A DNA stretch of 43,638 nucleotides from Paenibacillus sp. oral taxon 786 str. D14 (GTDB lineage Bacteria > Bacillota > Bacilli > Paenibacillales > Paenibacillaceae): positions 1-43,638 of the forward strand of contig NZ_GG695998.1 of the NCBI RefSeq assembly GCF_000159955.1, written 5' to 3'. The notes under the pieces were generated by a model. The model made no database searches. It saw only the letters and a list, made by a program, of their open reading frames with translations, and was not told the origin of the DNA. How positions within the stretch are numbered: the first letter of the stretch is position 1; every line of letters starts with the position of its first letter. Made by a program: the position numbers and the translations under genes. Positions 1,071 to 24,547 of this stretch are shown in pieces.

Positions 1071-3368
1071 ATGCTCTCTTTTTTATTTCCAAGCTGGTGC
1101 GAGCCCGGTCAAGGTCAGCACAAGCGAACGCTATGGTTCGAAATTCAATCCTCCCTTGATGCCACACCTATGGACTTTGCCAAGGCAACGCGGTTTGCCC
1201 GGCATATCAGCGGACTCGGGTATGCCCGGTTCCAGCGTCTTCGGCATGGACAACTCTATTTTCGTTTCCTGATCCAGTGTGCAGGACCTGCTGGACGGGT
1301 ACGGATCTACGTTTCTGTCCCCGACATTCGCTGGATGGGATTTCGTACCGGGTTCCACACACAGGTGTCCGGAATGTATTTGCTTCCGGTCAAGACACCC
1401 GTGTTTACCGCTGGTTCGGGCAAAAACGTGATCGTTGCCGAAGGCCGTCCGGCGTATAAGGGCGCTCTTTCCGTTGCAAGTATCCATCCGGTCGGCAAAG
1501 ATCCGCTAAACGAAATGATCGCCGCGATGGGTGCAGGCGAACTGGCGGAAGGCGAGGAGGTGTGGCTGGAGCTGGCCTTTGCGCCAGCGGGCAAGCGGCT
1601 CCTTCAGCGCCGTGTCCGCAGAGCCGAGAACTGGCTGCGTTCCCCGGCCAATGAGCCGGTGTCCCTGCAGTCCATTTGGCGGGAGATGAACACGAACCAA
1701 AAGGCCAAATCACGGCCACGGGAATTGACCGCCTACCAGCAAAACGTGATGCGGACGCTGCAAAGCAAACATGATGAAGATGAAGTCGGGCTGTGGACCG
1801 GATTTCGCGTGCTGATTCGTTCCTCTTCGGCGAAAGCGCGACTGCAAACGATGAACGATATGCTGCAATCGATGCGAAGCGGTAATGGCATCGTCCTCCG
1901 TCCGGTAAAAGGCAGAAAGCAGGTATTAGCACCGGGAACGCCATCCAAGCAGTTATTGCTCGCTTCGGAGGAACTGGGCTACTGGCTGCGCATTCCTGCC
2001 TTTGGCGATCCGGTCGCCGCGCATATGGAGAAGATGCATGCAAAAATTGTACCGGCTCCGACTGGACTCGACCACGGCCTCTACATCGGGAAAAGCAACG
2101 TGCCGGGCCAGGAACGGGACCTTCGTATGCCGCTGGGTCAAATGCTCAAGCATACGTTTCTCGCCGGCACAACCGGTTCCGGGAAAACGTCTACGCTGCT
2201 CTCGATCATGACCCGTATGGTTGAAGATCTGGAGAGGAAGCCGGACCAAGCACCCGGTTTTACATTTCTCGACCCGCACGGCGGGGCGATTGAAACGCTG
2301 CTGAGTTATATCCCGAAAAAGTTGTATCCGAAGTTGCACCTGATTCCTCTCGGGGCTACCGAACGGCCGCGCGGCTTCAACTTGTTTCAAGACGCGCATG
2401 CGGATGTACGGGAGTCGTTGACCGGGGAGTTTGTGACCACCTTGCAGCAATTGTTCCCGGGTTCGCGCCCGCGGGCGGAGCATTATTTACGGAATGCCGT
2501 GTTGAGTTTGTTGTCGGTGCCGCCGCAAACGGTACTGGGCATTATGGATATTTTCTATAACGAGAACTACCGGAGAAAATTGCTGCCGAAACTCGACGTG
2601 CATCTGCGCCATTTTTGGTTGGACGAGTTCGCGCAAATCAAAAATCTGGGGGATCATCTCGGTCCCATCATGAACAAGCTTGGTGCCTTAACGACGTACC
2701 CGACCGCACGGCGGATGCTGGGGCAAGAGCGCAGCAGCATCGACACCCGGCGGGCGATGGACGAGGGCCATATCGTGCTGATCGACGGCAGTGGCTGCGT
2801 CCCGGATTTACTGAAGATTCTGGCCAGCCTGTTTTTCATCGACTATCATTTCACCTGCCGCAAGCGGCCACAGCACAAGTCCAAAGCACATTTTTTCTTT
2901 GCTGACGAAGTCCATTTGTTTGCAACGGACATTTTAACGAAAATACTGGCCGAAGACCGCAAGTTCGGCTTGTCGGTCTTTCTGGCCACCCAGTATTTGA
3001 CCCAATTGTCCGATCGCATTCTGGAGGCGATTCTCGGCAATGTCGGAACGCTAATGTTGCTGCAACTCGGCGGGCCGGACGCGGACAAATTGTCGCGTTG
3101 GCTGAAACCCCAGGTGACAAATACCGATTTGATGAACCTGGCCGAGCTGCACGCCATTGTGCGCACGAAAGGACACGAAGGGCGTCTTGAGCTGTTTACG
3201 GTGAAAAACGAGATCGTGCCTATGAAGCACGAAGCCTGGATTCGGGAAGCGTGGGCGCATTCGGACAAACAGGATGGCCGATCGATTGAGACGGTCGAGC
3301 GGGAAATGAATATCGGAGAAGGACCGCAGTCCCCGCTAAACGGTTGGCGGCGCGACGATCCGGAGTAA
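1071..3368 (+). CDS. VirD4/TraD-like type IV coupling ATPase
   Basis: This is a conjugative coupling protein of the VirD4/TraD-TraG group (HerA/FtsK-like P-loop ATPases), which feeds the DNA-relaxase complex to the secretion channel at the membrane. In the 765-residue product, Walker A (GTTGSGKTS) is at about 366-374 and a Walker B-like FLDPHGG at about 399. A second acidic motif FFFADEVHLF, around D612-E613, fits the TraD/TraG C-terminal half. I chose the ATG at 1071 because it follows a GAGGGGAGGGGA site; the longer frame to 918 crosses a terminator. There is no obvious N-terminal membrane anchor, unlike classical VirD4, so it may dock through another protein. It opens the transfer cluster. 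Confidence 0.85.
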   Translation: MLSFLFPSWCEPGQGQHKRTLWFEIQSSLDATPMDFAKATRFARHISGLGYARFQRLRHGQLYFRFLIQCAGPAGRVRIYVSVPDIRWMGFRTGFHTQVSGMYLLPVKTPVFTAGSGKNVIVAEGRPAYKGALSVASIHPVGKDPLNEMIAAMGAGELAEGEEVWLELAFAPAGKRLLQRRVRRAENWLRSPANEPVSLQSIWREMNTNQKAKSRPRELTAYQQNVMRTLQSKHDEDEVGLWTGFRVLIRSSSAKARLQTMNDMLQSMRSGNGIVLRPVKGRKQVLAPGTPSKQLLLASEELGYWLRIPAFGDPVAAHMEKMHAKIVPAPTGLDHGLYIGKSNVPGQERDLRMPLGQMLKHTFLAGTTGSGKTSTLLSIMTRMVEDLERKPDQAPGFTFLDPHGGAIETLLSYIPKKLYPKLHLIPLGATERPRGFNLFQDAHADVRESLTGEFVTTLQQLFPGSRPRAEHYLRNAVLSLLSVPPQTVLGIMDIFYNENYRRKLLPKLDVHLRHFWLDEFAQIKNLGDHLGPIMNKLGALTTYPTARRMLGQERSSIDTRRAMDEGHIVLIDGSGCVPDLLKILASLFFIDYHFTCRKRPQHKSKAHFFFADEVHLFATDILTKILAEDRKFGLSVFLATQYLTQLSDRILEAILGNVGTLMLLQLGGPDADKLSRWLKPQVTNTDLMNLAELHAIVRTKGHEGRLELFTVKNEIVPMKHEAWIREAWAHSDKQDGRSIETVEREMNIGEGPQSPLNGWRRDDPE

Positions 3369-3390
3369 GGCTCATGCCTAATAAAGTCAG

Positions 3391-3438
3391 AGATCAAGAC
3401 TGAGATCAAGTCTGAGATAAAGATGGAGATAACCGGTC
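3391..3438 (+). repeat. 12-bp tandem repeat, iteron-like
   Basis: Four consecutive 12-base units begin with AGAT: AGATCAAGACTG, AGATCAAGTCTG, AGATAAAGATGG and a more diverged AGATAACCGGTC. They lie in the gap between the coupling protein and the replication-relaxation gene. Such direct repeats next to a hairpin are typical of protein-binding sites at transfer or replication origins. That function is inferred. Confidence 0.6.
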
Positions 3439-3532: not shown

Positions 3533-4408
3533 ATGTACGAAGCGGCAAAAAAGGAGTTGCTTGCGCTCATCTACCGATACGGACCAATGACCGCCAAACA
3601 GGCGGCGATCGTTCTGAATTACCGGTTGCCTACGCTTTACGCGATGGCCAGTCAATTGAACCGGCAAGGGTTAATTCGCAGCATTCCGCTTCCCTTCCTT
3701 CGGCTCAATCATGTAGGATACGGCCTGACCGCCCAAGGGGCAAAAACCGCCGCCCTGCTTGCCGGCGAAGAAGACGGTTTCCGTTCTAAAGCATGGGAGA
3801 AGTTGCCGATGCAACTGGAGCATGTGTACGGAACCAACGCATTTTTTGTTTCGCTCATTGAGCACAGTTTGCACCATAAAGGCGAAGGTATAACGGAGTG
3901 GCAGTCAACCCGGGAAGCCGCAGAACAATACGCCCATTTCAAAGAGTCCGGTAAAAAAACGATGCTGCTTCGTCCGGACGGATTATGCACGTATGTGCTA
4001 CCTGGGCGGGGGAGGCTTGTGCTGCATGTGGAGTACGATACCGGCAGCGAAAACCAATGGAAACTGCAGGACAAGTTGTGGTTGTACGGACGGGTGTTGT
4101 CCGCCGCGTGGCGGTCGGTTGCGGCTGTGCATGTCCTGTTCGTGACCAAGATCGAGTCGCGTCCGAAGCGTTTGTTGCGTCTTTGGGCTGCGCTCGGCGA
4201 AGGGCCGCTGATTGGTCGTCCGTTGCCGAACGTCTGGGCAATCAGCGAGAGCGAATGGAAGCGAAAAGGCGTAGAGGAAGCACTTTGGTGGGGAGTGGGG
4301 GAGTCGCGCATCCGGTTGAAAGAGATGCCGCTGCTGCCGCCCGCAGAGGCAGATTTGCCGCTTCTCGGCAAACAGCCGCGTGAGCCGTCCCCGATCGCAG
4401 GGAGGTGA
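3533..4408 (+). CDS. Replication-relaxation family protein
   Basis: The 291-residue protein begins with a winged-helix-type region (about 1-75: helices around 'MTAKQAAIVLN' and 'LPTLYAMASQLNRQGLIRS'). It continues with the 'YGLTAQG' and 'LEHVYGTNAFFVSL' segments that I associate with the Replic_Relax family of Gram-positive mobile elements. Members are found beside coupling proteins and are thought to act at plasmid or ICE origins; their exact biochemistry is not settled. No three-histidine relaxase motif is visible. The ATG follows AAGGAGAGAG. It is probably translated from the same transcript as the coupling protein and lies directly after the repeat and hairpin region. Confidence 0.7.
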   Translation: MYEAAKKELLALIYRYGPMTAKQAAIVLNYRLPTLYAMASQLNRQGLIRSIPLPFLRLNHVGYGLTAQGAKTAALLAGEEDGFRSKAWEKLPMQLEHVYGTNAFFVSLIEHSLHHKGEGITEWQSTREAAEQYAHFKESGKKTMLLRPDGLCTYVLPGRGRLVLHVEYDTGSENQWKLQDKLWLYGRVLSAAWRSVAAVHVLFVTKIESRPKRLLRLWAALGEGPLIGRPLPNVWAISESEWKRKGVEEALWWGVGESRIRLKEMPLLPPAEADLPLLGKQPREPSPIAGR

Positions 4409-4414
4409 ATGGAC

Positions 4415-5230
4415 TTGGAATTTCGTTGGCTGCCGAAGCTGCTCCTGTGGAGCATGCTAATGTTTTCCTGTTTGGGGGCGGTTTCTACGCTGTTTCGCAC
4501 GGATACCGATCCAGTCCCCGCCTTGCTCACACGAACGGCCGAGCAGCAGATGGCGATCCAAACGGCGCTCGGGTTTGCCCGGGAATGGATGTTCTGGGAC
4601 GGCGGGGAATTGCCGGAAGAGCGAGTGCAGCGGCTGCAGCCCTATGTCAATCCGGATGCGCTTGCCCGTGTCGCTGCCTTACAGGCCGAATCAAACACTC
4701 GAAGTCAACAGGTGATGGCATCGGAGTTTTTGACCATCGCCGCTAGCGGCGGATCGTCCTATCGGGTCCGGGTTCGCGTTATTGTTGCCAATCCGGAGCG
4801 GATGATGTGGGAGGTTGAAGTGCCGGTTTGGGTTCAAGCAACAAAAGGGGCGGCGGTTACCGATCCGCCAATCATTCGATCATTACAGGAACCACCAATC
4901 GTCCCGAAGATTCCGCAAGCAGCAGCGGCATCCGCTGCGGTGGAAGAGCGGATGCGTTCGGCCATGGAAAGTTTCCTGAAAGCGATATGCGAAAGCAAGG
5001 ATGCTGGCAGCCTGCTCAATTATGTAACGGCAGACACCAAAATGGTTCCGCTAAATGGCCGGTTGCGTTTTGTAACGTTAGATCGTTTGGAAGCGACAGG
5101 AGAAGGACCTTACGACGTAACGGTTTCATTTACCATCGAGGATGCATCGACCGGCTTTCGTTTGGCGCAGGTGTGGCGGATGAAGGTAACGGAAGAAAAT
5201 CAAAAGTTTTTTGTGGCGGCTATGCAGTAA
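4415..5230 (+). CDS. VirB8/TcpC-like conjugation protein
   Basis: About 271 residues with one N-terminal membrane helix (about 7-27, LLLWSMLMFSCLGAVSTLF) followed by an exported part with two similar beta-rich NTF2-like halves. This is the layout of TcpC of pCW3 and of VirB8-type scaffold proteins, which bind and position channel parts outside the membrane. The second half (about 170-271) carries the longer conserved-looking block ending in 'FFVAAMQ'. An ATG at 4409 is nearly inside the GGAGGTG site, so the TTG at 4415 is the better-spaced start. It abuts the preceding stop, implying coupled translation. Confidence 0.7.
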   Translation: MEFRWLPKLLLWSMLMFSCLGAVSTLFRTDTDPVPALLTRTAEQQMAIQTALGFAREWMFWDGGELPEERVQRLQPYVNPDALARVAALQAESNTRSQQVMASEFLTIAASGGSSYRVRVRVIVANPERMMWEVEVPVWVQATKGAAVTDPPIIRSLQEPPIVPKIPQAAAASAAVEERMRSAMESFLKAICESKDAGSLLNYVTADTKMVPLNGRLRFVTLDRLEATGEGPYDVTVSFTIEDASTGFRLAQVWRMKVTEENQKFFVAAMQ

Positions 5231-5568: not shown

Positions 5569-6273
5569 ATGAACGAGCAGGAGAAAGCGGAATCGTATCG
5601 TGCCTTATATCGGGTTCGTCCGCTTATCTACCATATTGGGGATATAAGGTTATGGATGCCGATCCGGCAGGATGGCGTCGTCATGTGGCTTGTCTATCTT
5701 TTCGTCTTTTTCATTTTTTGTTACATCTTGCCTGTACTTACGGTGCTTCCGTTCGATCGGGCGATCACGATGACGGTCGGCCCGGTCGCTGCGGCTTATT
5801 ATACGGTCAAGCTGGATCCGGCGGGCAAAACGGTGCCCCACTATTTGCGGGACATTGTTCATTTTCTGGTTCGGCCCAAATGGGTGGTCCGTTGGCAGGC
5901 GGTCCGTCAACCTGGCGGTACCCATCGGGTTCGGTTTATCGGGCACTGCCGTCCTTATGAACGGCTGCCGCTTCAACAAGGAGGCGAGGAGTGGTGCGGC
6001 CGTAAGGGACAATTGGTTGGAACGGTGGAAGGTTTTCGCGTTCTCTTCCTTCCCGCACTTGTACGCATGCGCTGGATGGTAAGATCAGGCCGATTGTCGA
6101 TCATGCCGCTCAAACGGCAGCCGAAACAGGCCATTGTACCGCCTACCTGGCTCGAAGGACATCGTGTGTTGTACGGGAGCGCGGCCACCCCGCTCCAATT
6201 GGAGCGGGAGTTCAAAGAGAATGGCAAAGAACATTGGAAGGCTCAAGTCAGAGCCGACAATCATGCGAGGTGA
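5569..6273 (+). CDS. TcpE-like conjugal transfer membrane protein
   Basis: A 234-residue protein with two adjacent membrane helices (about 40-60 and 65-85), then the cytoplasmic segment 'PHYLRDIVHFLVRPK', typical of the TcpE family. TcpE-type proteins recruit VirB4-type ATPases to the conjugation channel at the inner face of the membrane. The C-terminal half is basic and its function is unknown. It starts four bases after the preceding stop and is followed within ten bases by the next gene, so it is part of the same operon. Confidence 0.65.
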   Translation: MNEQEKAESYRALYRVRPLIYHIGDIRLWMPIRQDGVVMWLVYLFVFFIFCYILPVLTVLPFDRAITMTVGPVAAAYYTVKLDPAGKTVPHYLRDIVHFLVRPKWVVRWQAVRQPGGTHRVRFIGHCRPYERLPLQQGGEEWCGRKGQLVGTVEGFRVLFLPALVRMRWMVRSGRLSIMPLKRQPKQAIVPPTWLEGHRVLYGSAATPLQLEREFKENGKEHWKAQVRADNHAR

Positions 6274-6548: not shown

Positions 6549-9041
6549 TTGAAATGCCCCGTGTTGTACTGGGAGCAAAACCTGCTGTTCGATTCGCTTC
6601 TGAAACCGTGGGCGGTGTATCGCATACCGCTGAAGCCGTATGCCTACCAGTCCGCGGAGAAAAAGCGCGGCACGGTCAGCCAGATGCAGCAGTTTTTGCA
6701 TAGCTATCATGGCTATGGACAGTTGTTGTCGGTAACCCGGATGATGGATGCCGAACACTGGCGACGGCGGCGAATAGGGCAGGGCGCGGAGCACGAACGA
6801 TATGTGAAGGCGGTCATGCAACGGTTTGACGCACGTCGACCGTGGCAGCGATCGCTTTATTTGATTGTGCAGCTTTCCGACGTGCAAAAACAGTTTCCCG
6901 AAGTTGATTTGTCCGGGTTTCGAAAAACGGGCCAAACGTTAAAGGAACTGGCCGCCGCTTTTCTGAGCCAAATTCAGGAGCAGTTCTGGTACCGTCAGCG
7001 CGGCGAACTGGAGGAAGAGCGCCTGCATATGGCCAAATCCGCCGAGAGCCTGCAGTTTAATCACGTTTACCATCATTTAAACGGAGAACGATGTGGTCCG
7101 CAAGAGATTGAATGGTTGCTTCGCCAGGGCTTTTTCCGGGGACTTTCCCGGGAGCCGGAACTAATCTTGACGCCGGAAGCGATGCGCGAAGTGCGGGTAA
7201 GAGGCGACAGAGTGCTGCTCCGCCCGAAAAAATCACTGCCGATTTTGCTGGCTTCCGATTTGGTGAGCGAAGAGAAGATGAAAACGCTGGTTGTCCATCA
7301 TGACGATCAGGACGAAGAAAGCTTAAGAAGTTATCAAGCGTTCTTTTCGGTTGTCGATGTGCCGGAAGAGATTTTGGCAATTGGCGACGAGTGGCTGTAT
7401 GCGCTCGAGGACCTGCCGTTTCCCGCCGAAGTCAGCCTACACTTTCAGGTGCAAACGCCGCACGAGGCGGCCGGCGGTCTGCAGCGCAACCGGAAGGTGC
7501 TGAAAGACCAGCGCCGGGAATATGCCGAAGCGTCCGAAGAGACGCCGATCACGTTGGAATGGGCAGGCAAACGCGGACGTGTGTTGGAGAATAAATTGCA
7601 AAAAGGGATGCCGCTCGTCTGGTCTTCCGCATGGCTTAATGTGTCGGGAGGCTCTCGTAAGGAACTGGAGGAGCGCGCAGCGCAGTTGCTGCAGCTGTAC
7701 GCGACCAAGCAAATTCGCATCGTTCGTTCTCCGGCGGATCAGGCGCGGGCGTTTCAACTTTTTTTGCCGGGAGCGGCGATGGACAAGCAAAACCGCATCC
7801 CGATGGACCCGAAGTTTTTGGCGGCGGGTATGCTGCACGGATCCCGGGAAATCGGCGATCCGGACGGGGACTATATCGGACGGACATTGCACAGTATCCC
7901 GGTGCTGCTCGACCTGAAGCGTCCGATGTCCAAGGAATTGAACCGTTCCGGGGCAATCGTCATCGTCGGTACGCTCGGCTCGGGAAAGTCGGTGTTGAAG
8001 AAGACGTTGTTTTATCACGGGTACAATCAAGGCGGCATCGTCTTTTCTATCGATCCTAAGGATGAGGATAGCTGTTTTGCGCTCATCCCGGATATTCAAA
8101 AAAACATGGTGCGGCTCAACTTTTCGGCGGAATCGACAACAAAATTCAATCCGTTCCGAATGTCGAAAAGCGAAGAACGTGCGCACAGCATCGTATTGGA
8201 TTTCCTCAGCCTGCTGTTGGAGGGCACTCGGAACGACGAGCGGGCCGACGCCATTATGGAGGCCGTGGAGCGTACGTTCGAGCAAGACAAGAGGGACTTA
8301 CATGTCTTCATACGGGAAATGGAGCGGATTGCGAACGATTCGCCGGTTGATGCGATCCGGGTGGAAGCGCGGCGCTGTGTGAACCGGCTGTTGTCCTATT
8401 CGCGAAGTCCGTTCGGCAAATTTATTTTCGCCCATGACGGGGAAGAAAACGCGAATATGAGCGGCGCGCGGTTTATCGTCATCACGCTTGCCGGGTTACC
8501 TTTGCCGAAGAAACGAACCGAACGGCTGCAGCAGGCGTTGACGCCGAACGAACGGTTCGGCATTGGTATTATGTATTTGGTTGCGGCACTAGGGCGTGAA
8601 TATATGTTTCACCGTCCAAGCGATCAACTTAAAATCTTCGGCATTGATGAGAGCTGGATTCTCCGCGCCTTTCCGGAAGGCGCCCTGCTTATCGATGAAA
8701 TCATCCGGATGGGTCGTTCCTTTCAGGTCGTGCCCTTACTTGCGACTCAAAACCCCGGCGATGTGGCGGACGAGGAGACGAGAAATAATCTCGGCTCCAT
8801 TTTTTGTTTCCGGACGGAAGATCCGCGTGCGATTGCGGACAATTTGACGCTGCTCGGTTTGGATCGGGGGGACGAGGACATGATCCAGGCATTCCGGGAG
8901 CTTAAAGCCGGTGATTGCTATATGAAGGATATCACAGGTCGAATCGGACGGGTGCATATTGAGCCGACACCGGATGATTTGCTCACCATTTTTAATACAA
9001 CGCCGAAAGCCGGCGATATGGAAGGGAGGGAGAACTGTTGA
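6549..9041 (+). CDS. VirB4-like conjugation ATPase
   Basis: The 830-residue ATPase drives assembly of, and transport through, the conjugation channel at the cytoplasmic membrane face. The first 450 residues are the diverged VirB4 N-terminal region. Walker A (GTLGSGKS) is at about 474-481, followed by 'SIDPKDED'. Walker B 'IFGIDESW' has D700 and E701, and the motif 'LLATQNPGDVADEETRNNLGS' region is typical of VirB4/TraC/ConE C-terminal domains. The TTG start has AGGAGGTG five bases upstream. Length is normal for the family. Its stop overlaps the next start by three bases. Confidence 0.9.
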   Translation: MKCPVLYWEQNLLFDSLLKPWAVYRIPLKPYAYQSAEKKRGTVSQMQQFLHSYHGYGQLLSVTRMMDAEHWRRRRIGQGAEHERYVKAVMQRFDARRPWQRSLYLIVQLSDVQKQFPEVDLSGFRKTGQTLKELAAAFLSQIQEQFWYRQRGELEEERLHMAKSAESLQFNHVYHHLNGERCGPQEIEWLLRQGFFRGLSREPELILTPEAMREVRVRGDRVLLRPKKSLPILLASDLVSEEKMKTLVVHHDDQDEESLRSYQAFFSVVDVPEEILAIGDEWLYALEDLPFPAEVSLHFQVQTPHEAAGGLQRNRKVLKDQRREYAEASEETPITLEWAGKRGRVLENKLQKGMPLVWSSAWLNVSGGSRKELEERAAQLLQLYATKQIRIVRSPADQARAFQLFLPGAAMDKQNRIPMDPKFLAAGMLHGSREIGDPDGDYIGRTLHSIPVLLDLKRPMSKELNRSGAIVIVGTLGSGKSVLKKTLFYHGYNQGGIVFSIDPKDEDSCFALIPDIQKNMVRLNFSAESTTKFNPFRMSKSEERAHSIVLDFLSLLLEGTRNDERADAIMEAVERTFEQDKRDLHVFIREMERIANDSPVDAIRVEARRCVNRLLSYSRSPFGKFIFAHDGEENANMSGARFIVITLAGLPLPKKRTERLQQALTPNERFGIGIMYLVAALGREYMFHRPSDQLKIFGIDESWILRAFPEGALLIDEIIRMGRSFQVVPLLATQNPGDVADEETRNNLGSIFCFRTEDPRAIADNLTLLGLDRGDEDMIQAFRELKAGDCYMKDITGRIGRVHIEPTPDDLLTIFNTTPKAGDMEGRENC

Positions 9042-10984: not shown

Positions 10985-11011
10985 TCTAACTATGTGCCAA
11001 AGGTGAAACGG

Positions 11012-16500: not shown

Positions 16501-17232
16501 ATGAAAAAAATCGTTTTTCTCGGTGCGCCGGATAAAAGCCATTTGCTGCTCGTGCTGGGTAAACTGCTGGTTGCCGCTGGGCAAAAGGTGCTTATCGTCG
16601 ATTCAACGATCGCACAATCGATACTTGGGTTTATGCCATCTCCGGATGAACGGCAGGCTTCTTTCGTTACCGAATTTGAAGGTATGGATATCGCGGCAGG
16701 GTTCCTTACGTTCGGCCAATTGGACCATTTTCTGAAACAAACGGAAACGGAAGGGGGATGGGCGAATTACGATGTGTTCCTGCTCGATACGGATCATACC
16801 GAATTTGTGAAAGGAAAAGATCTGCCATCCTTTGACCAAAGGGTCTGGTGCAGTAATTTGGAGAAGCTGGCGATGTTGAAAAATGCGGAGTTGATGCGTC
16901 GGCTTTGTCTTACCGAATCCACCATTCGGCCGCTGCCGTTTTTTAAGTTGGTAAATCCGTTCGTACAGTCGACAATAGCGGAGTCGTACATCGATTCGCA
17001 TGTGACAACGGAAGCTGTGGAGTGGCAGGAGCCGGTATTTCGCATCCCGTACGATGAGCGGGATGTTTCGGTCCGCATCGATCACCAGCATCATAGCCGC
17101 ATTGAACTAAGAAAGCTGTCGCCAGCATACCGACATACGGTCTTTTCTATGGCTAAGCATATATTCGGCCTGGATGAGCGAACGATCAAAGCCGCGTGGA
17201 AACGAGCGAGGAGGGTTTTTCGTGGGTCATAA
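16501..17232 (+). CDS. degenerate MinD/ParA-like protein
   Basis: A 243-residue protein whose start 'KKIVFLGAPDKSHLLLVLGKLL' (given in part) has the beta-P-loop-alpha pattern of MinD-like proteins, but the glycine-rich GKS/GKT signature is missing. 'KVLIVDST' and 'YDVFLLDTDH' match the later strands. It probably no longer binds ATP in the usual way. Position between SAF and TadA genes suggests a regulator or adaptor of the pilus ATPase. The start has AGGAGG eight bases upstream. Assignment rests on pattern, not on a family match. Confidence 0.5.
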   Translation: MKKIVFLGAPDKSHLLLVLGKLLVAAGQKVLIVDSTIAQSILGFMPSPDERQASFVTEFEGMDIAAGFLTFGQLDHFLKQTETEGGWANYDVFLLDTDHTEFVKGKDLPSFDQRVWCSNLEKLAMLKNAELMRRLCLTESTIRPLPFFKLVNPFVQSTIAESYIDSHVTTEAVEWQEPVFRIPYDERDVSVRIDHQHHSRIELRKLSPAYRHTVFSMAKHIFGLDERTIKAAWKRARRVFRGS

Positions 17233-18055: not shown

Positions 18056-19927
18056 ATGATCGTTTGGATCAACGGCATCATGATCGTCCTGTTGCTTGGG
18101 CTGACCACTGCGCTGATCTATTTTCGCATGAGCGGGCAGAAAGCGGAAAAGCCGCCGCAGGAACGAGCCTTTACGATTGAGGCGATGACCGCATTTGTAA
18201 TGCAGACGTTACACGATTTGACGAGCGGTAACTTACATGACCTCGGACTATCCGAGGAGGAGTTTCGCCGCCGGAAAAGCAAGCGGGCTGAACTGAAAAA
18301 AGCGCTGCGCGGCTGTACATCCGGAGACATCCGGGACAAAGCGTACGTCAAACAATATTTGGCGGATTTACTGGTTCAGCAGTATGGGGTTAATGAAACG
18401 AACATCGACCGGGTAATCGCGTTCGACGACCCGTATGAACTTTCACCTCAGGACCAGTTCGAAATTTTGCTGTACCTGTACAAAAAACGATACCGGTATG
18501 ATGCGCTCGGGGAGTTGATTCGCAAGTACGAGCTGGACCGGCCCAAACTCGGTATTGAAGATGGCCGGACCGAATCGTATCGGATTACCGCCGATGAAAT
18601 CCACGAGATTTACAAAAAAGAAGCGCGGCGGCTGCACTTCGACGACAAACTTAGCATTGTCGTGCAACGCATTTATCAAATGTACAAGGGCTTCAGTGTC
18701 GTGGACGAGATCCGGGATATGAAGATCGACGGCGTGTCGGGAGGCGTATCCGGTTTGCCGCCCTCCGTATGGGAAGGGGAATGGGAGTTCCAGGCCGACT
18801 CCTTATTGCGGGAAGTGCCGAAATCTCACGATAGTGTTTGGGTTTTTTACAAAGGGAAATCCATTCACTTCAGCTTCCTCTCCTTTGGTTCGGAGCAAGA
18901 ACTGAAGCGTGTCTGCCAAAATATTTACAAGTACAACTATCCCGGCCAATTGTCGGAGAGCAACGGCTATAAAGTAAACGAGATGGCTGACGGCTCCCGC
19001 GTCGTCGTGTTGCGTCCCCGGTTCAGCGAATCGTGGGCGTTTTTTGTGCGCAAATTCGATGTGCAAAGCGCCACGCTGGAACAGCTCATCCGGGATCAAA
19101 ATGCTGAGCTGCCGATCCGGCTCATTCAGTATCTCGTTAAAGGAGCCCGAATTACCGCAATTACCGGTGCGCAGGGCAGCGGGAAAACGACGCTCTTGAT
19201 GGCAATGGTCCGATACATTCCCGCTACGTACACGATCCGGGTCCAGGAGATGAACTTCGAATTGAACCTGCGGAAAATCTATAAGGACCGCAACATCCTG
19301 AGCTTCCGGGAAACCGAGACGATTTCCGGCCAGGAAGGGCTGGATATTCAGAAAAAGACGGATGGTACGGTCAACATTCTCGGCGAGGTGGCTACGGATC
19401 CGGTTGCGGCATGGATGATTCAGATGGCGCAGGTGGCCTCGCTGTTTACGCTGTTCACCCATCACGCCAAGACGCTCCGCGATCTGGTGTTTTCTTTACG
19501 GAACTCGCTGCTGAAAACCGGTGTATTCCAGAACGAAAAAATTGCCGAACAGCAAGTGATCAGTGTACTTAACTTCGATATCCACTGGAAGCGCGATATG
19601 AACGGCCACCGTTACATTGAGCGTATTACCGAATGCGTACCGCTCGATCAGGAGAAGGCGTACCCCGTCCATTTTCGGCAAGGTGAGAAGTTAGATGACA
19701 AGATGGCTGCATTTATGGAAACGGCTGTTGAGTTTTTTCAGCGTTCCACCGACCGGAAGCTGTACGAGGAGCGAAATGTGATTGAATTTCAAAACGGAGC
19801 CTATGTGGCGATTCACCCTATATCCGCTCAAAACGTAAACGAGATGCGGGAACAGATGCCGGATGCGGATCGCATAGCCTTTGAGGCTTTTCTAATGGAG
19901 AACTGGGGGGAACGGTATGGAATTTAA
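18056..19927 (+). CDS. CpaF/TadA-like secretion ATPase
   Basis: A 623-residue member of the VirB11/TadA/CpaF ATPase family, which powers pilus extension (and, in Tad systems, retraction) from the cytoplasm. After a signal-anchor-like hydrophobic start (about 3-22) and a long N-terminal region, Walker A GAQGSGKTT lies at about 371-379. 'VNILGEVATDPVAAW' is the Walker B box, and 'FTLFTHHAKTLRDLV' the histidine-containing box. The N-terminal hydrophobic helix is unusual for CpaF. It overlaps the next gene by 11 bases. It is the only VirB11-family ATPase in the window, so it may also serve the conjugation channel. Confidence 0.85.
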   Translation: MIVWINGIMIVLLLGLTTALIYFRMSGQKAEKPPQERAFTIEAMTAFVMQTLHDLTSGNLHDLGLSEEEFRRRKSKRAELKKALRGCTSGDIRDKAYVKQYLADLLVQQYGVNETNIDRVIAFDDPYELSPQDQFEILLYLYKKRYRYDALGELIRKYELDRPKLGIEDGRTESYRITADEIHEIYKKEARRLHFDDKLSIVVQRIYQMYKGFSVVDEIRDMKIDGVSGGVSGLPPSVWEGEWEFQADSLLREVPKSHDSVWVFYKGKSIHFSFLSFGSEQELKRVCQNIYKYNYPGQLSESNGYKVNEMADGSRVVVLRPRFSESWAFFVRKFDVQSATLEQLIRDQNAELPIRLIQYLVKGARITAITGAQGSGKTTLLMAMVRYIPATYTIRVQEMNFELNLRKIYKDRNILSFRETETISGQEGLDIQKKTDGTVNILGEVATDPVAAWMIQMAQVASLFTLFTHHAKTLRDLVFSLRNSLLKTGVFQNEKIAEQQVISVLNFDIHWKRDMNGHRYIERITECVPLDQEKAYPVHFRQGEKLDDKMAAFMETAVEFFQRSTDRKLYEERNVIEFQNGAYVAIHPISAQNVNEMREQMPDADRIAFEAFLMENWGERYGI

Positions 19928-21989
19928 CCAGTTGCTTTCCCTTGTCTTTGGCGGGGCGGTCGTGCTGCTTCTAGCCGCGATCCTGCTGTTCCAGTGGTTG
20001 TCTCGCAAAAATACGGGCGCGGGTTCGATCCGCGAATATGAGGAACTGCGGCTCCCCGGCAAACCGACGAGTCGACAAGCGGTTTACAGTATCTTGCAAC
20101 GCATCTATTTGGCTTGCGAACGGGTTCCGCTGCTTCGTGCTTACCTGAACACGATCCGCAAGCGGCTGATGGTGCTAGAGCGGTACGATGAATGGAAGCT
20201 GCGGCTGGAGACGATCAAGATTGCGCTTGCGGCATGGGGGCTGTTGGCGTTCACTCTGATTCCGCTGATCGGCTTTGTTCGTGATCCGGTGACTTTGATC
20301 ATGATGGTCACAGGCATTTGGGCCATACATGGCATGCTTGCGGATCTGTTCGTGCATCGTGCGGAAAACCGGCTGCTTCACCAGCTTCGCCACTTTATGG
20401 CCGATGTGCGGCATCATTACCATCGGCATGAAATGGTGGAGGAAGCGGTCTACGATGCGACGGAAACTGCGCCCTATGAGATGGCGTTGCACGGGCAGGA
20501 AGTCTATGAGGTGCTGACCTCCCACGAACCGGACGAGAGGCTGGAACGTTACGAGGAAGTGGCGCCGAATCGCTTTCTGAAAGGGTTGGCCGGGATTTCG
20601 CATTTGATTAAGGAATACGGGGACAAGAAACTGCAGACCGGTTCGCTCTACTTGAAGGCGCTTGGCAAACTGACGACCGAACTGAACCTGGAAATTTTGC
20701 GGCGGGAGAAGCTTAGCTATTTGCTGCAAGGGCTGACGGCGATTGCGCTTTTTCCGATGTTGTTCACAAAGCCGATTGAAAGCTGGGCCAGCCACTATTT
20801 TCCGATGATGGACGAATTTTATGCCGGTAAGCTTGGGTGGATCACGAAAGTGGCTCTTCTACTGGTCATTCTGGTTTCCTATGTGTTGCTTCGCAACATG
20901 CGGGAGTTGGAGGGCGAAACCAAACCGCGGCGACGCAAGCCTTGGGAGCAAAAAGCGTACGAACTTCAGTGGGTTCGCCGGCTGATTGACCGAATCGTTC
21001 CACATCCGGAAACGCGGGAAGCCACGCGCTGCAAGAGGCTGCTAGCCGAAACAAACTCGCCGCTCCGCTTGGAATGGTTTTGGGTGCAGCGCGCGACAGC
21101 CGGCATACTCGCGTTTCTGCTGACACTCGGGCTTTTTGTCACGTTGCATGCAGTCACCAAACACCAACTGTTATATGCACCGGTCAAACCGGATATGATG
21201 TTTGGCCGCTTGTCCCCCCGGGAAGAAGCGGAAAGCCGGGAGAAGTCGGTGCTGGATCGCCGGATCATGACGGAAGTGAAGGGGGTGAAAACCGGACTTC
21301 CGGAAGCTGTGCGTGCCGCTTTGCGCAGCGACCCGCAGTTACAGCGGGAAGAAGCGGAGCTGTTTGCTGCCGCGCAGCGCATTCTGTCCAAAATGGAAGC
21401 TATGAACCACGAATACTTGAAATGGTGGGAGGTGATGCTGGCGTTGTTTGGGGGCTGGGTCGGCTACTCCGCTCCGGTCGGCGTTCTACAGTTTCGCCGG
21501 CGAATGCGGCAGATGGAAATGAAACATGAAGTGGACCAGCTCCAGTCGGTGATCGCCATGCTGTCCGAAATGGACCGAATGTCGGTAGAGCACATGCTCG
21601 AATGGATGGAGCGCTTTGCCCACATCTTCAAGACACCGATTCAGCATTGCCTGCTTCATTATGAACATGGCGCGGAACAAGCGTTGGAGAATCTGAAAGC
21701 GGAAGCCCCGTTTTTGCCGTTTGTTCGCATGGTGGAAAAACTGCAAATGGCGGTCGAACGGATTCCGATCCGGGACGCGTTCGATGACCTGGAATCTGAG
21801 CAAACCTACTTGCAGGAACAGCGTAAGCAAGATTACGAAGGGCTCTTGGATGCAAAAGCCGGGTGGGGGAAAATGATCGGCTTCGCACCGATGATGGTCC
21901 TTATCTTCGGTTATCTTGTTTTTCCGCTCGTCTATGTCAGTCTGTCGCAGATGACCGTCTATTACGAGCAGATTCAGAAAATTCAATAA
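19917..21989 (+). CDS. fused TadB-TadC-like pilus platform protein
   Basis: A 690-residue membrane protein containing two T2SF/GspF-like halves in one chain. Hydrophobic helices are at about 7-29, 100-145, 264-282, 305-325, 386-410, 502-525 and 654-680. Each half has a cytoplasmic helical bundle between membrane helices; the second (about 530-650, with 'HEVDQLQSVIAMLSEMDRM') resembles TadC/TadB. In Tad systems TadB and TadC are separate and form the inner-membrane platform on which the ATPase works. The gene starts inside the ATPase gene, so the two are coupled. A terminator follows at once. Confidence 0.7.
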   Translation: MEFNQLLSLVFGGAVVLLLAAILLFQWLSRKNTGAGSIREYEELRLPGKPTSRQAVYSILQRIYLACERVPLLRAYLNTIRKRLMVLERYDEWKLRLETIKIALAAWGLLAFTLIPLIGFVRDPVTLIMMVTGIWAIHGMLADLFVHRAENRLLHQLRHFMADVRHHYHRHEMVEEAVYDATETAPYEMALHGQEVYEVLTSHEPDERLERYEEVAPNRFLKGLAGISHLIKEYGDKKLQTGSLYLKALGKLTTELNLEILRREKLSYLLQGLTAIALFPMLFTKPIESWASHYFPMMDEFYAGKLGWITKVALLLVILVSYVLLRNMRELEGETKPRRRKPWEQKAYELQWVRRLIDRIVPHPETREATRCKRLLAETNSPLRLEWFWVQRATAGILAFLLTLGLFVTLHAVTKHQLLYAPVKPDMMFGRLSPREEAESREKSVLDRRIMTEVKGVKTGLPEAVRAALRSDPQLQREEAELFAAAQRILSKMEAMNHEYLKWWEVMLALFGGWVGYSAPVGVLQFRRRMRQMEMKHEVDQLQSVIAMLSEMDRMSVEHMLEWMERFAHIFKTPIQHCLLHYEHGAEQALENLKAEAPFLPFVRMVEKLQMAVERIPIRDAFDDLESEQTYLQEQRKQDYEGLLDAKAGWGKMIGFAPMMVLIFGYLVFPLVYVSLSQMTVYYEQIQKIQ

Positions 21990-22076: not shown

Positions 22077-22556
22077 ATGTCCAACGCTCAAAAAGCGATC
22101 GTCATGGCGGCCGGCATTTTGCTGGCCGTCGCACTGATCACCTTGGCCGTTCTGCTGTTTATTTCCGCGCAGGATTCGACGAAAACGGCACAAAGCAATT
22201 TTTCCAACCTTCAGACGGAACTGTCGCAAATGCAGTTTACCGTCTACGACAACACGGTGCTGTCCGGCAGCCAAACCGTCAATGCCATTCGCAAGTTCAG
22301 CGGGGAGGACCAGTTTGGTATCCAAATCATCACCGGGAAAAATCCGGCCGGCCAATGGTACGGTAAAGTCATCAATACCGGCGTGTCGATGGATAGCATC
22401 ACCTACGGAACCGTCATAGGGGCCGCCCCCGGTCAGCTTGATCACACGATGGATGAATCTAACGTCAACTATGTAAACCCAAGCGGCAAGTTCAGGGCAC
22501 AACTGATCAAGGACAAAAGCAACGTGATCCGCGGCATCATCTTTCGGCAACAGTAA
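22077..22556 (+). CDS. pilin-like small membrane protein
   Basis: A 159-residue protein: short basic N-terminus, one long hydrophobic helix (about 9-31, with 'AAGILLAVALITLAVLLF') running into a Gln/Thr-rich helix, then a beta-rich exported domain. This is the lollipop shape of type IV pilins, and the position after TadA and TadBC fits a major pilin. No textbook prepilin-peptidase site (Gly followed by Glu at +5) is visible, so assignment rests on shape and context. The ATG has AAGGAGAGG upstream. Confidence 0.55.
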   Translation: MSNAQKAIVMAAGILLAVALITLAVLLFISAQDSTKTAQSNFSNLQTELSQMQFTVYDNTVLSGSQTVNAIRKFSGEDQFGIQIITGKNPAGQWYGKVINTGVSMDSITYGTVIGAAPGQLDHTMDESNVNYVNPSGKFRAQLIKDKSNVIRGIIFRQQ

Positions 22557-22636
22557 GAACGGACCGGCGAACGGCATCCTTTGACCTGAAAGCGCAAAGG
22601 CATGTCCGCTTCGCTTTGCGGAAAGGAGGACGGCTT

Positions 22637-23035
22637 ATGGGGCACTCCGTACGAACCATGATGGATATGAGCTTTGCATGTCTTATATTTGTGATGGCAG
22701 CCACCGCCGGGCTGCTCCTGTTTCAAGGCGGGGCGGCCGCGCTGAATGCGGCCGTTGTTTCAGAGCGAATACAGGAACGAAATGTCCACCAAACGTTTTT
22801 CCCGATAGCCGGGGACGGCAGTGTATCCGGCGCAGAAGTACTGCAATCGCTTGTCCAAATCGGGGACATTGGGGTGGAAATCGTTGTGAATGGCGTTGAA
22901 TATGCAACGACGATGGAGCGGGATGATATCTCAGCATCAAGCATTCGGTTGGATAGCCGGTATGAACCCTCGTACGAACGCGGTCCGGACGGGCAGTTGC
23001 GGCGAATTGCTTTTGTTTTGCGAGGTGGAGGATGA
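22637..23035 (+). CDS. TadE/F-like minor pilin candidate
   Basis: A 132-residue protein with one N-terminal hydrophobic helix (about 12-38, 'FACLIFVMAATAGLLLF') and a small exported domain. Similar size and topology to pseudopilins (TadE/TadF), but I cannot show sequence identity. The ATG at 22637 follows AAAGGAGGA. It overlaps the next gene by four bases. Confidence 0.5.
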   Translation: MGHSVRTMMDMSFACLIFVMAATAGLLLFQGGAAALNAAVVSERIQERNVHQTFFPIAGDGSVSGAEVLQSLVQIGDIGVEIVVNGVEYATTMERDDISASSIRLDSRYEPSYERGPDGQLRRIAFVLRGGG

Positions 23036-23580
23036 ACAGTCTGCTCAAAGTGTTTGCCGTCCTGATCGCAGTTCTTATATTATATATCTTCCCGGTTTCC
23101 GCCGCTTTTGATCAGCAGGATGATGTATCCGAACTGGTGGTCTTGCGGGCAACAACATCTTTTGTCGACGCGGTCCGAGACAAAGGTTATATTTCCCCGG
23201 TCATGTACAACGATTTTATCCAGGCTATCCATTTGACGGGAAATACCTTCGACGTTCAGATGGAGCACGGACAAAAGCGGTACAACCCGGTTTATGACGA
23301 TCCTACGCTTCCGGAAACGTTCCGTAGCGAATACGACGTGCATTACGATACATTTTACAATGCACAAATCTTGAAGATGCTTTTTCCGGACAGCGCGGCG
23401 GGCAAAGACGATCCGGCACGCCGCTACCGGCTGCATGTCGGAGATACGTTCTCCGTTGTCGTGAAAAACACGAACCGGACGAATGGAACTATCCTACATG
23501 ATTTTTTGAATCATGCGATCAGTCCGAATGAGAAAATCTTCGTTCCGTATGGAGGCATTGTCCGAAATGAAGATGATTAA
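23032..23580 (+). CDS. exported protein of the pilin cluster, 182 aa
   Basis: A signal peptide (about 1-25, probable cleavage at 'VSA' before 'AFDQ') leads a soluble domain that I do not recognise, with the tyrosine-rich block 'YNPVYDDP'. The ATG overlaps the preceding stop (ATGA) and the next gene begins inside its end, so three small genes are tightly coupled. It may be a minor pilus or periplasm-like wall-zone subunit. This is context only. Confidence 0.5.
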   Translation: MNSLLKVFAVLIAVLILYIFPVSAAFDQQDDVSELVVLRATTSFVDAVRDKGYISPVMYNDFIQAIHLTGNTFDVQMEHGQKRYNPVYDDPTLPETFRSEYDVHYDTFYNAQILKMLFPDSAAGKDDPARRYRLHVGDTFSVVVKNTNRTNGTILHDFLNHAISPNEKIFVPYGGIVRNEDD

Positions 23581-24547
23581 TTGGGCGGTCGTGGGCGTTC
23601 TGATTTTATTTCCGTTGTTCGTTATCAATCGTATCGAAACGGATACCCAGCGGCGGGTATTGCTCACCGAACTGCGGTACGATGCAGCGTTGGATACAGC
23701 GGTAGATGATGCGGCGCGGGCGCTTTTGATCAATGCCGACCAACAACAGGAAGCACGCTATGAATCGGTCAAACAGGTACGGGTGAACAAGGAGGAAGCG
23801 ATTGATACGTTTTACCGAACCCTGTACATGAACTTCGGCATTGCCGAAGATACGGTAGCTCAAGGCGTTCTTCGCCGTTACATTCCCGCGATCATCGTGA
23901 TGGACTATGACGGGTTCTGGGTATATGCAGAGGAAGAGTTTCGTAATGCGGCCGGAGAAACGGAAATTCGTCCGGTCTGGGGAGTGAAGAAGCCATATGC
24001 TTATGCCGATGGCCAGGGGAACAGTTTGTCCTTTACGTTGGACGATTACGTCCTTGCCTACGAAGCCGAAAGCGGGACATGGCGGGAAGGCTTCCGATCG
24101 GAAATCCAGGCGGAGAACACGATTCCTCTCTTGCGGGATGCGGCATTGTTCGAACAGGTGCGTCGCAGAACGATCGTGGACGCCATTCAGAATGAACTGG
24201 CATACCGAATCAATCGGCATAATCAATACGTTTCCCGCTACGGCATCTCCTACACGTTTACGCTGCCGACGATCAGTGCCGAAGAATGGAATAACACGAT
24301 CGACGATATCGGCGTAATGGCGTTTGTGCAAGGGATTCCGATGGGAAGCAAAACGTACAACAATTACGCGCTCGGCGGCAGCCGGGTGCTGAAAAAGCCG
24401 GCGATTGTCGGCGCAGTGAAAGACGGCAGAAAAGTGTATTACCGCGACACCTGCGATTACACTTACCCGGTTGAAGAGACGTTTGCGAGCGAAAAGGAGG
24501 CTGCGCGGAACGGATATTGGCCGCTGGAATGCAGCAATAACCATTGA
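23567..24547 (+). CDS. pilin-cluster membrane-anchored protein, 326 aa
   Basis: A protein with a single N-terminal helix (about 4-20, 'WAVVGVLILFPLFVI') and a large exported domain, in the size range of TadE/TadG-type proteins or tip subunits. I see no VWA metal site or other motif that would fix the class. The GGAGGC site supports ATG at 23567 or 23573 inside the end of the preceding gene; the frame opens earlier at 23513 without support. It ends the pilin-like group. Confidence 0.5.
   Translation: MKMINWAVVGVLILFPLFVINRIETDTQRRVLLTELRYDAALDTAVDDAARALLINADQQQEARYESVKQVRVNKEEAIDTFYRTLYMNFGIAEDTVAQGVLRRYIPAIIVMDYDGFWVYAEEEFRNAAGETEIRPVWGVKKPYAYADGQGNSLSFTLDDYVLAYEAESGTWREGFRSEIQAENTIPLLRDAALFEQVRRRTIVDAIQNELAYRINRHNQYVSRYGISYTFTLPTISAEEWNNTIDDIGVMAFVQGIPMGSKTYNNYALGGSRVLKKPAIVGAVKDGRKVYYRDTCDYTYPVEETFASEKEAARNGYWPLECSNNH

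What the first reader, a model, noticed from the sequence alone, without database searches (positions are those of the whole stretch)
1071..24547. Conjugation channel and Tad-like pilus encoded in one gene run
VirD4, VirB8/TcpC, TcpE, VirB4, VirB6 and wall-hydrolase genes run directly into TadZ, CpaB-like, CpaF/TadA, TadB-C and pilin-like genes, all in one direction with many overlaps. Gram-positive conjugation systems normally have neither a Tad pilus nor a VirB11-type ATPase. The combination suggests a joint apparatus in which a Tad-like pilus assists mating contact. Seen: gene order and motifs. Inference: shared function.
Basis: partly seen in the sequence, partly recalled or inferred. Interest (0 to 1): 0.8.

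Follow-up and report, generated by a model that had tools for sequence, protein, structure and literature searches.

The report
Conjugative elements carrying a Tad-like pilus
This stretch of a Paenibacillus-type genome is a mobile element that carries a DNA-transfer machine and, in the same gene run, a set of genes for a retractable-type pilus; relatives suggest the pilus is a regular partner of the transfer machine, probably to hold donor and recipient cells together, but no experiment has shown it.

Summary
The gene run is real: a TcpC/TcpF-type conjugation system (918-11968) is followed on the same strand, with no gap above 204 bp, by a divergent Tad-like module (13587-24547) and two surface-protein genes (to 29357). 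The Tad-like core also exists alone: 93 of 110 TadA loci in 146 relatives have no VirB4 over cut-off within 50 kb, so "one system" fails as a general rule. But one TadA clade is tied to conjugative elements: 31 of 44 members lie within 60 kb of a VirB4, in two element types with unlike T4SSs and opposite gene order. All 7 window-type T4SSs with enough contig have a Tad-type locus in the same slot; in one (G249) it is a different, canonical Tad operon. A third, TcpC-type plasmid arrangement likewise holds the Tad-like module (G033, G349, P. urinalis, P. lautus) or other T2SSE-type pilus loci (G125, G369, G400). A fourth pairing is in Butyrivibrio. Best reading: a mating-contact pilus whose family can be exchanged (inferred, 0.62), not a VirB11. 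Precedents: C. acnes and Sulfobacillus plasmids carry T4SS plus tad genes, role unknown. New variant of a known kind.

The parts
918..3368 (+). VirD4-type coupling protein (ATG at 1071 also possible)
   Evidence: Pfam TrwB_AAD_bind 5.2e-9; SXT_TraD 1.6e-8 (below cut-off)
3533..4408 (+). replication-relaxation (PF13814) protein
   Evidence: 5.2e-15
4409..5230 (+). TcpC / VirB8-like
   Evidence: PF12642 1e-16
5569..6273 (+). TcpE
   Evidence: PF12648 4.6e-14
6549..9041 (+). VirB4 / TcpF ATPase
   Evidence: AAA_10 5.9e-55; TcpF model 3.7e-55
9038..10555 (+). VirB6-like membrane protein
   Evidence: NF046089 6.2e-26 (below cut-off)
10994..11968 (+). wall hydrolase, SLT + M23
   Evidence: M23 6.1e-33, SLT_2 1.3e-5
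12275..13063 (+). Dam-type DNA methyltransferase between the two halves, also in the type-1 elements read (L033-L037, L197, L199, L220)
   Evidence: PF02086 2.6e-28
13587..15089 (+). TadZ/ParA-like ATPase with N-terminal extension
   Evidence: AAA_31 2.8e-13; CpaE_hom_Actino 7.8e-12 (below cut-off)
15356..16489 (+). CpaB/RcpC-like SAF protein
   Evidence: SAF 1.7e-11; pilus_cpaB 1.2e-10 (below cut-off)
16501..17232 (+). [not shown]
   Evidence: found in most module loci
17174..18052 (+). [not shown]
   Evidence: minD_bact 1.6e-4 (below cut-off)
18056..19927 (+). TadA/CpaF-type ATPase, 623 aa, divergent family
   Evidence: T2SSE 7.2e-5 (just below cut-off); TIGR03819 1.1e-8; PDB CpaF 6.8e-18; Walker A G371, G376, K377 and H469-H470 invariant in 19
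19917..21989 (+). TadBC-like membrane platform, one 690 aa protein
   Evidence: hhalign to canonical TadB: probability 88.5, E 2.7e-6 over 235 columns of its first half; all-helical model; no PDB fold match
22077..22556 (+). pil1, probable major pilin
   Evidence: AF2 pLDDT 80.6: helix 3-52 then beta domain; two to four copies in many Clostridia loci; no prepilin motif; no PDB match
22616..23035 (+). pil2, pil1-related small membrane protein
   Evidence: iterated profiles of pil1 and pil2 merge
23032..23580 (+). pil3, conserved one-helix surface protein
23513..24547 (+). 344 aa conserved one-helix surface protein (possible minor pilin)
24666..25817 (+). CuAO-N / stalk-domain secreted protein; an SLH protein stands here in some relatives
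   Evidence: PF07833 1.4e-36; SLH
25821..29357 (+). DUF5704 secreted protein, 1178 aa; present beside all 17 VirB4-linked modules of the 146-genome set
   Evidence: PF18964 5.1e-81
31785..32804 (+). tyrosine recombinase, probably of the element
   Evidence: Phage_integrase 4e-32

Best explanation
An integrative conjugative element of Paenibacillaceae with a TcpC/TcpF-type DNA transfer channel and its own Tad-like type IV filament. The T4SS half takes the DNA through the donor's envelope (coupling protein VirD4, motor VirB4, VirB6/VirB8 channel, SLT-M23 hydrolase). The Tad-like half (TadA ATPase, TadBC platform, pil1 as main subunit) builds a thin filament; with the two secreted proteins (stalk/SLH and DUF5704) it catches a recipient or a surface and, since CpaF-type motors can also retract, draws the mating pair together. 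It would do the work of the LPxTG adhesins of other Gram-positive elements. Shown: the genes, order, recurrence, co-inheritance, and that the slot next to the T4SS is filled by other Tad-type loci in several relatives. Inferred: that a filament is made, that it retracts, that it serves mating.
For: (1) Every window-type T4SS with enough contig has a Tad-type locus directly downstream: 7 of 7 (G001, G011, G108, G135, G140, G378:C42, G249); the other 2 (G008, G103) end at contig ends, G103 after tadZ. (2) In G249 the T4SS (VirB4 85%, VirD4 77% identical) is followed by tadZ (31%) and then a canonical Tad set: CpaF (T2SSE 1e-27), TadB (T2SSF 5e-14), and, each below Pfam's cut-off, SAF 5e-4, a second T2SSF 6e-4, TadE 2e-4, Tad 2.5e-3; then an SLH protein 2e-31. 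(3) The same happens in the TcpC-type arrangement: after VirD4 and a replication-relaxation protein come the Tad-like module (P. urinalis, P. lautus, P. rubinfantis contig) or, in G369 and G400, a T2SSE ATPase of another kind (1e-24; 4e-5, below cut-off); G349 has the full Tad-like module 24 kb from VirB4, G125 a SAF-T2SSE (3e-23)-T2SSF set 18 kb from it. (4) The window's TadA clade is also joined to a different T4SS (CD1110 VirB4 1066 bits, CD1115 VirD4 550 bits, VirD2-like relaxase) in opposite order: 25 of 35, with 9 cut by contig ends. (5) In G135 and G140, which hold both element types, TadA follows the T4SS type. (6) TadA and T4SS protein identities rise and fall together among six type-1 elements (Spearman 0.77-0.94, pairs not independent). 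(7) Butyrivibrio pCY360: VirD4-PrgI-VirB4 follow the module within 1 kb. (8) pil1 has pilin-like topology.
Against: No transfer or pilus experiment. Most Tad-like modules live without a T4SS near, so the module has some use of its own. G121's CD1110-type T4SS has no module in 47 kb upstream, and nine distant TcpF-type contigs, read whole (13-60 kb), have none, among them two that look like complete small plasmids (G393, G278). G378:C15 has a type-1 module with Dam but no T4SS gene in the last 8 kb of its contig. G249 and G400-type cases are single drafts (G249: 210 contigs, contamination estimate 7%). TadBC and pilin assignments are weak. No prepilin peptidase or convincing prepilin motif was found.
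Confidence: 0.62

Rival explanations
1. The pilus is cargo: an adhesion or colonisation organelle useful to the host cell, spread by elements that happen to carry it. No part in mating.
For: 93 of 110 module loci in 146 relatives have no VirB4 over cut-off within 50 kb; Clostridia and many Paenibacillus have it with no T4SS gene in the flanks held; Tad genes are often on plasmids in general (PMC6668835, passages read); arsenic-type and defence genes lie next to the run as ordinary cargo would.
Against: Fixed slot beside the same T4SS in 7 of 7 resolved type-1 cases; other Tad-type loci in that slot in G249 and in the matching slot of G369 and G400; VirD4 just upstream on the module's strand in the TcpC-type plasmids; module kept in 25 of the 26 CD1110-type elements whose contig allows a verdict.
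Confidence: 0.23
2. The Tad-like machine is a secretion device that puts the stalk/SLH and DUF5704 proteins (or pil proteins) onto the surface; the adhesion is done by those proteins, not by a filament.
For: DUF5704 lies beside all 17 VirB4-linked modules seen in the 146 genomes; no convincing prepilin motif.
Against: Both proteins begin with ordinary Sec-type signal sequences as read (judged by eye); modules without DUF5704 within 13 kb are common (72 of 110); pil1 is multicopy in many Clostridia loci, as pilins are.
Confidence: 0.08
3. TadA takes the place of VirB11 and powers the conjugation channel itself; a truly merged apparatus.
For: VirB11 and CpaF belong to one ATPase superfamily (recalled); adjacency; a VirB11-like ATPase is claimed for pAW63 (PMC9673590, passage read).
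Against: TadA travels with its own platform and pilin genes in the loci read; scores TadA over VirB11; T4SSs without it exist.
Confidence: 0.04
4. The pilus serves DNA uptake (competence-like) rather than donor contact.
For: A tad locus is needed for transformation in Micrococcus luteus (cited in PMC5696575, passage read).
Against: No competence genes among the 40 window ORFs scanned.
Confidence: 0.03

Closest known systems
Cutibacterium acnes linear plasmids with tad locus (PMC5696575, passages read)
   Same: Gram-positive plasmid with VirB4- and TcpC-like genes upstream of a tad locus; a pilin was detected on cells; [quoted passage not shown]
   Different: Actinobacterial, linear plasmid, Tad with TadE2; here Bacillota ICEs with a divergent module; not compared by sequence here
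Sulfobacillus thermotolerans plasmids pL15/pY0017 and ICE-like region of Kr1 (PMC6803676, passages read)
   Same: backbone with MinD-like, CpaF-like, TadB/TadC-like genes plus TraG, VirB4, lytic transglycosylase
   Different: described there as T4SS plus T2SS homologues; the passages propose no role for the latter; not compared by sequence here
TcpC/TcpF-type conjugation systems (pCW3, Tn916 kind; recalled)
   Same: VirD4, TcpC, TcpE, VirB4, VirB6, SLT hydrolase
   Different: no Tad module in those models (recalled); [quoted passage not shown]
CD1110/CD1115-type ICEs
   Same: the type-2 elements that carry the same TadA clade match both NCBIfam models over cut-off
   Different: the models say nothing of a Tad module; G121 lacks it
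Canonical Tad/Flp pilus of the same hosts (L187-L196)
   Same: TadZ, CpaF, two-part platform
   Different: host locus has a 64 aa Flp-like and a TadV-like protein (by eye) and separate TadB and TadC; the window module has none of these, is about 28% identical in CpaF and has one long platform protein
Tad-like loci without prepilin motif ('no Flp_2', PMC3244431, passages read)
   Same: Gram-positive tad-like loci with no recognisable prepilin
   Different: those keep tadV; not compared by sequence here

Membership tests
TcpC/TcpF-type Gram-positive conjugative T4SS | VirB4 ATPase | tested here: met
   AAA_10 5.9e-55 over cut-off; TcpF model 187 bits (its cut-off of 1100 is for TcpF itself)
TcpC/TcpF-type Gram-positive conjugative T4SS | VirB8/TcpC and TcpE | tested here: met
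   PF12642 and PF12648 over cut-off
TcpC/TcpF-type Gram-positive conjugative T4SS | VirD4 coupling protein | tested here: met
   PF10412 over cut-off
TcpC/TcpF-type Gram-positive conjugative T4SS | VirB6 membrane protein | tested here: inconclusive
   NF046089 91 bits, cut-off 120
TcpC/TcpF-type Gram-positive conjugative T4SS | wall hydrolase | tested here: met
   SLT_2 and M23 over cut-off
Integrative conjugative element | recognised relaxase | tested here: inconclusive
   none among the 40 window ORFs scanned; only PF13814; in G001 the likeness runs to the window's first base, so the element may reach beyond it
Integrative conjugative element | site-specific recombinase | tested here: met
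   Phage_integrase 31785-32804; another one at the matching end in G001
Integrative conjugative element | excision and transfer | not testable with these tools
   needs mating assay
Tad/Flp (type IVc) pilus | TadA/CpaF ATPase | tested here: met
   (hhalign 99.6, E 7e-24)
Tad/Flp (type IVc) pilus | TadB and TadC platform proteins | tested here: inconclusive
   TadB to N-half 88.5, E 2.7e-6; TadC not found (5.0 and 0.4); no T2SSF hit; with the second alignment A7 TadB scored only 3.8; fold searches without match
Tad/Flp (type IVc) pilus | TadZ and CpaB/RcpC | tested here: met
   Pfam domains over cut-off; NCBIfam equivalogs below cut-off
Tad/Flp (type IVc) pilus | Flp pilin with prepilin motif | tested here: not met
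   pattern scan of pil1, pil2, orf344: none; pil3: one loose match at residue 25
Tad/Flp (type IVc) pilus | TadV prepilin peptidase in the locus | tested here: not met
   no Peptidase_A24 hit in the 40 window ORFs scanned
Tad/Flp (type IVc) pilus | filaments on cells | not testable with these tools
   needs EM
VirB11 ATPase | VirB11 equivalog score | tested here: not met
   TIGR02788 22.6 bits, cut-off 249.95, below TIGR03819

The most novel reading that the evidence does not exclude
A Tad-type pilus is a standing mating-contact organelle of several Gram-positive conjugation lineages. Pilus families are interchangeable in its slot (Tad-like module, canonical Tad operon, other T2SSE-type loci), and the Tad-like family has been joined to at least three unlike T4SSs in Bacilli and, separately, to one in Clostridia. 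Gram-positive elements would then have pilus-aided conjugation after all, built from type IV filament parts and not from VirB2/VirB5.
Probability: 0.5. Interest if true: 0.8.

Novelty: new variant of a known kind. Interest (0 to 1): 0.65.

Why it matters
Gram-positive conjugation is usually described with surface adhesins and no pilus (recalled; a 2025 review contrasts the two and says these systems are much less known and universally lack VirB11 homologues, PMC12857230, passages read). A pilus locus that recurs beside unlike T4SSs, with different pilus families in the same slot, makes a direct test possible: delete the pilus motor, measure transfer. It also gives a marker (the TadA clade with DUF5704) for a family of mobile elements in Paenibacillaceae that I found described in no held paper.

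Tried and rejected
Reading TadA as a VirB11: rejected on scores and because it comes with its own platform and pilin genes.

Module as an invariable part of the T4SS: rejected by the counts.

First idea that loci L038-L053 had no conjugation genes (which looked about 12 kb upstream): wrong for most; the T4SS lies 30-40 kb downstream.

I had counted one of 14 distant TcpF-type T4SSs as linked, from flanks of at most 20 kb; reading the contigs further gave five. I had left two DUF5704 rows (G005, G013) out. These changes raised my odds (best 0.55 to 0.62, novel case 0.42 to 0.5, interest 0.6 to 0.65) and lowered the cargo rival (0.28 to 0.23).

Fold searches for pil1 and TadBC in the PDB gave no trustworthy match; families not listed are not excluded. 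Sequence search of the PDB with pil1, TadBC and orf344 profiles: nothing of note. Internal duplication of TadBC: not seen by hhalign (2.4).

Promoter and terminator scan over 800-20000: counts no higher than in shuffles beyond noise (9 against 14.3; 26 against 23.4 +/- 4.5), so it says nothing on operon limits.

Literature: DUF5704 is in no held paper. Searches for a Gram-positive element with Tad and conjugation gave the two precedents above and no paper on Paenibacillus; subscription journals are missing, so this is not proof of absence. Phage records: 3 partial TadA matches, none covering 80%.

Limits of counts: the TadA list is cut at about 150 rows; one search used 64 rows picked by hand (62, 2): all rows of 66% identity or more, and rows of genomes with a VirB4 hit as far as I saw them. 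VirB4 fragments under 200 aa (G049, G247, G230, G002) were left out of the 35, and broken genes counted once. Of the eight CD1110-like VirB4s at 37-49%, none is linked; G168 was read for 39.8 of 45.4 kb without a Tad locus. The and 123 searches used profiles of the Tad-like TadA/TadBC and of the hosts' canonical Tad proteins; G400's ATPase scored only 8e-8 with them, so still more distant loci may be missed in the nine contigs without a hit. VirB4s of distant kinds may be missed near TadA loci. Of 13 clade TadAs without a VirB4, I read five further: G006, G013, G161 and G320 hold cut-down type-2 elements; G378:C15 has no T4SS gene to its contig end. The tree used 60 TadAs in 'quick' mode; L075 was labelled 'plasmid_other' there although its record carries a VirB4 match about 30 kb away. 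I opened 14 of the 23 plasmid records that one search counts with 80% of the query covered.

Full report

What the Tad-like half is. TadA matches CpaF/TadA best (TIGR03819; PDB CpaF 6.8e-18; canonical host CpaF by hhalign, probability 99.6); G371, G376 and K377 of Walker A and H469-H470 are invariant in the 19 aligned members from Bacilli and Clostridia. The host genomes also own a canonical Tad locus with separate TadB and TadC, a 64 aa Flp-like protein and, last in the run, a 167 aa protein at the place of TadV (Flp and TadV names by eye). The window module has neither of the last two, and one long platform protein. That protein matches canonical TadB weakly over its first half (88.5, E 2.7e-6 with alignment A2; 3.8 with A7; negative controls 0.1) and not TadC. 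pil1 is predicted as a 50-residue helix followed by a beta domain (pLDDT 80.6, pTM 0.56), as in type IV pilins, without a match in the PDB. So I call it Tad-like, not Tad.

The module on its own. In 146 relatives, 110 loci encode the long TadA; 17 have a VirB4 over the family cut-off within 50 kb, 38 have DUF5704 within 13 kb, and all 17 are among these. By hand, chance would put about one VirB4 that close, given about 30 VirB4s, one or two TadAs per genome and 5-6 Mb genomes. In 80 named loci the core recurs in Paenibacillus, Cohnella, Tumebacillus and uncultured Clostridia, often with two to four pil1-like genes in the latter; only 3 of 80 show T4SS genes in the flanks held, up to 10 kb each side. 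Thus the module is also an independent filament system of Bacillota.

Type-1 elements (the window's T4SS). In 392 genomes of the order, 9 VirB4s are 81-99% identical; 14 more are 24-29%. Of the 9, six have the window-type TadA 10.6-13.5 kb downstream on the same strand; G103 runs to tadZ and orf93 and G008 to the hydrolase before their contigs end. G249 has T4SS, Dam, orf104 and tadZ, then a canonical Tad operon: SAF, CpaF, TadB, TadC, TadE, Tad, then an SLH protein (only CpaF, TadB and SLH pass Pfam's cut-offs). A T4SS that keeps a pilus operon at one place while its family changes is what one expects if the T4SS profits from a pilus.

Distant TcpF-type T4SSs (24-29%). Of the 14, five have a pilus-type locus on the contig: G033 and G349 the full Tad-like module with DUF5704, on the other strand, 20 and 24 kb from VirB4; G125 a SAF-T2SSE-T2SSF set 18 kb downstream with a CuAO protein after it; G369 a 695 aa T2SSE ATPase with T2SSF- and DUF4320-type proteins; G400 (a 256 kb contig, by length the P. 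sonchi plasmid) a 497 aa ATPase with a sub-threshold T2SSE match. In G369 and G400 the locus follows a VirD4 and a replication-relaxation protein, the slot that holds the Tad-like module in P. urinalis and P. lautus. The other nine contigs, read whole (13-60 kb), show none; G393:C2 and G278:C2 come from two-contig genomes and may be complete plasmids, so real absences exist.

Type-2 elements. Here the module comes first, with chromosomal rlmD upstream in 11 of 16 loci, then, in G024, DUF5704, a 2427 aa helicase/methylase, a VirD2-like relaxase, VirD4 of the CD1115 family, a short VirB2-like protein (weak), a five-helix protein, VirB4 of the CD1110 family and an NlpC/P60 hydrolase. Of 35 VirB4s at 82% or more, 25 have the module on the same contig and strand, 24 of them at 29.6-41.4 kb and one at 16.4 kb. 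Of the other 10, nine are cut by contig ends: G265, G249:C85 and G145:C39, G145:C24, G280 and G120 (coordinates), and G093, G103:C26 and G135:C171, whose contigs still hold DUF5704. One, G121, has no module in 47 kb upstream. Eight more distant VirB4s (37-49%) have none linked. The unlinked clade members G006, G013, G161 and G320 still hold the relaxase and, except G161, a shortened VirD4, without VirB4: cut-down elements.

Plasmids. Of 14 plasmid records with a full-length TadA that I opened, 6 have an AAA_10 (VirB4-type) match over cut-off and 11 any match; 3 have TcpC. In P. urinalis, P. lautus and the P. rubinfantis MT18 contig (same length as G033:C12), VirD4 and a replication-relaxation protein stand upstream on the module's strand; TcpC, TcpE and VirB4 run the other way in P. 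urinalis, VirB4 also in G033. T. composti pTHECO01 is similar. Lysinibacillus, Sporosarcina and Cytobacillus plasmids have a TraM/VirD4-type and a replication-relaxation gene near the module. In Butyrivibrio proteoclasticus pCY360 the core is followed, after a cold-shock gene, by VirD4, PrgI and VirB4. A. pseudofirmus, Cytobacillus and Paenibacillus pHD02 give no AAA_10 match.

History. In a tree of 60 TadAs all type-1 and type-2 members fall in one clade of 27 (support 100); within it all type-2 members form one clade (100). The TcpC plasmid types fall in two other places and the Clostridia types outside (root and long branches unsure). G135 and G140 carry type-1 and type-2 elements side by side, each with its own TadA kind. 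Among six type-1 elements TadA identity follows that of VirB4, VirB6, TcpC and Dam.

How it most likely works. The filament, perhaps tipped or held by the stalk/SLH and DUF5704 proteins, makes first contact; CpaF drives extension and retraction in Caulobacter (PMC11300603, search listing with start of abstract), so retraction would bring cells together; then the hydrolase and T4SS act. Steps after 'the genes are there and stay together' are inference. The main rival is cargo (0.23).

What is known. C. acnes linear plasmids pair VirB4 and TcpC genes with a tad locus, and the authors left the link open (PMC5696575, passages read). Sulfobacillus plasmids pair CpaF/TadB/TadC-like genes with TraG and VirB4 (PMC6803676, passages read). 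Tad systems were the type IV filaments most often on plasmids in one survey (PMC6668835, passages read). New here, as far as the searches show: the divergent DUF5704-linked module, its repeated joining to unlike T4SSs in ICEs, and the exchange of pilus families in one slot.

Noticed in passing
window 33315-36068: CBASS-like set (name recalled): SMODS nucleotidyltransferase (2.9e-19), a 155 aa ORF and an HNH-SAVED protein (5.1e-41). It lies in the part of falling GC that shows no likeness to G001's copy.
   Followed up: no
window 36747-40656: OLD-type ATPase with TOPRIM (717 aa) next to a UvrD helicase (584 aa), as in Gabija defence (name recalled). With the CBASS-like set it looks like a small defence island between the recombinases.
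   Followed up: no
window 41125-43076: Two more tyrosine recombinases in tandem on the - strand, besides the one at 31785.
   Followed up: no
window 30521-31487: DUF6036 nucleotidyltransferase-like ORF followed by a 126 aa ORF, possible toxin-antitoxin pair.
   Followed up: no
L088 (G001:C1:2495800-2515700): Arsenic-type genes (ArsA ATPase, SBF permease, a methyltransferase) beyond the left side of the run in G001.
   Followed up: partly
L200 (G249:C1:302000-316000) 2305-10104: Canonical Tad operon and SLH protein in the slot of the Tad-like module; a serine recombinase follows at 13047.
   Followed up: partly
L254 14108-19379 and L255 1-3589 (G400:C2); L257 2832-9563 (G369:C97); L256 2614-8598 (G125:C3): Three further pilus-type loci with T2SSE ATPases of 497, 695 and 499 aa beside TcpC-type conjugation genes, none of them the window's family.
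   Followed up: partly
L121-L186, uncultured Clostridia: Many gut and rumen Clostridia carry the module core with two to four tandem pil1-like genes.
   Followed up: partly
L039, L040, L042-L047, L050-L052: rlmD (23S rRNA methyltransferase) lies upstream of the Tad-like module at that end of type-2 elements.
   Followed up: partly
L074 30852-32632, L073 31992-33782, L102 25165-26954: GGDEF and HD-type phosphohydrolase genes follow DUF5704 on several plasmids, hinting at second-messenger control of the filament.
   Followed up: no
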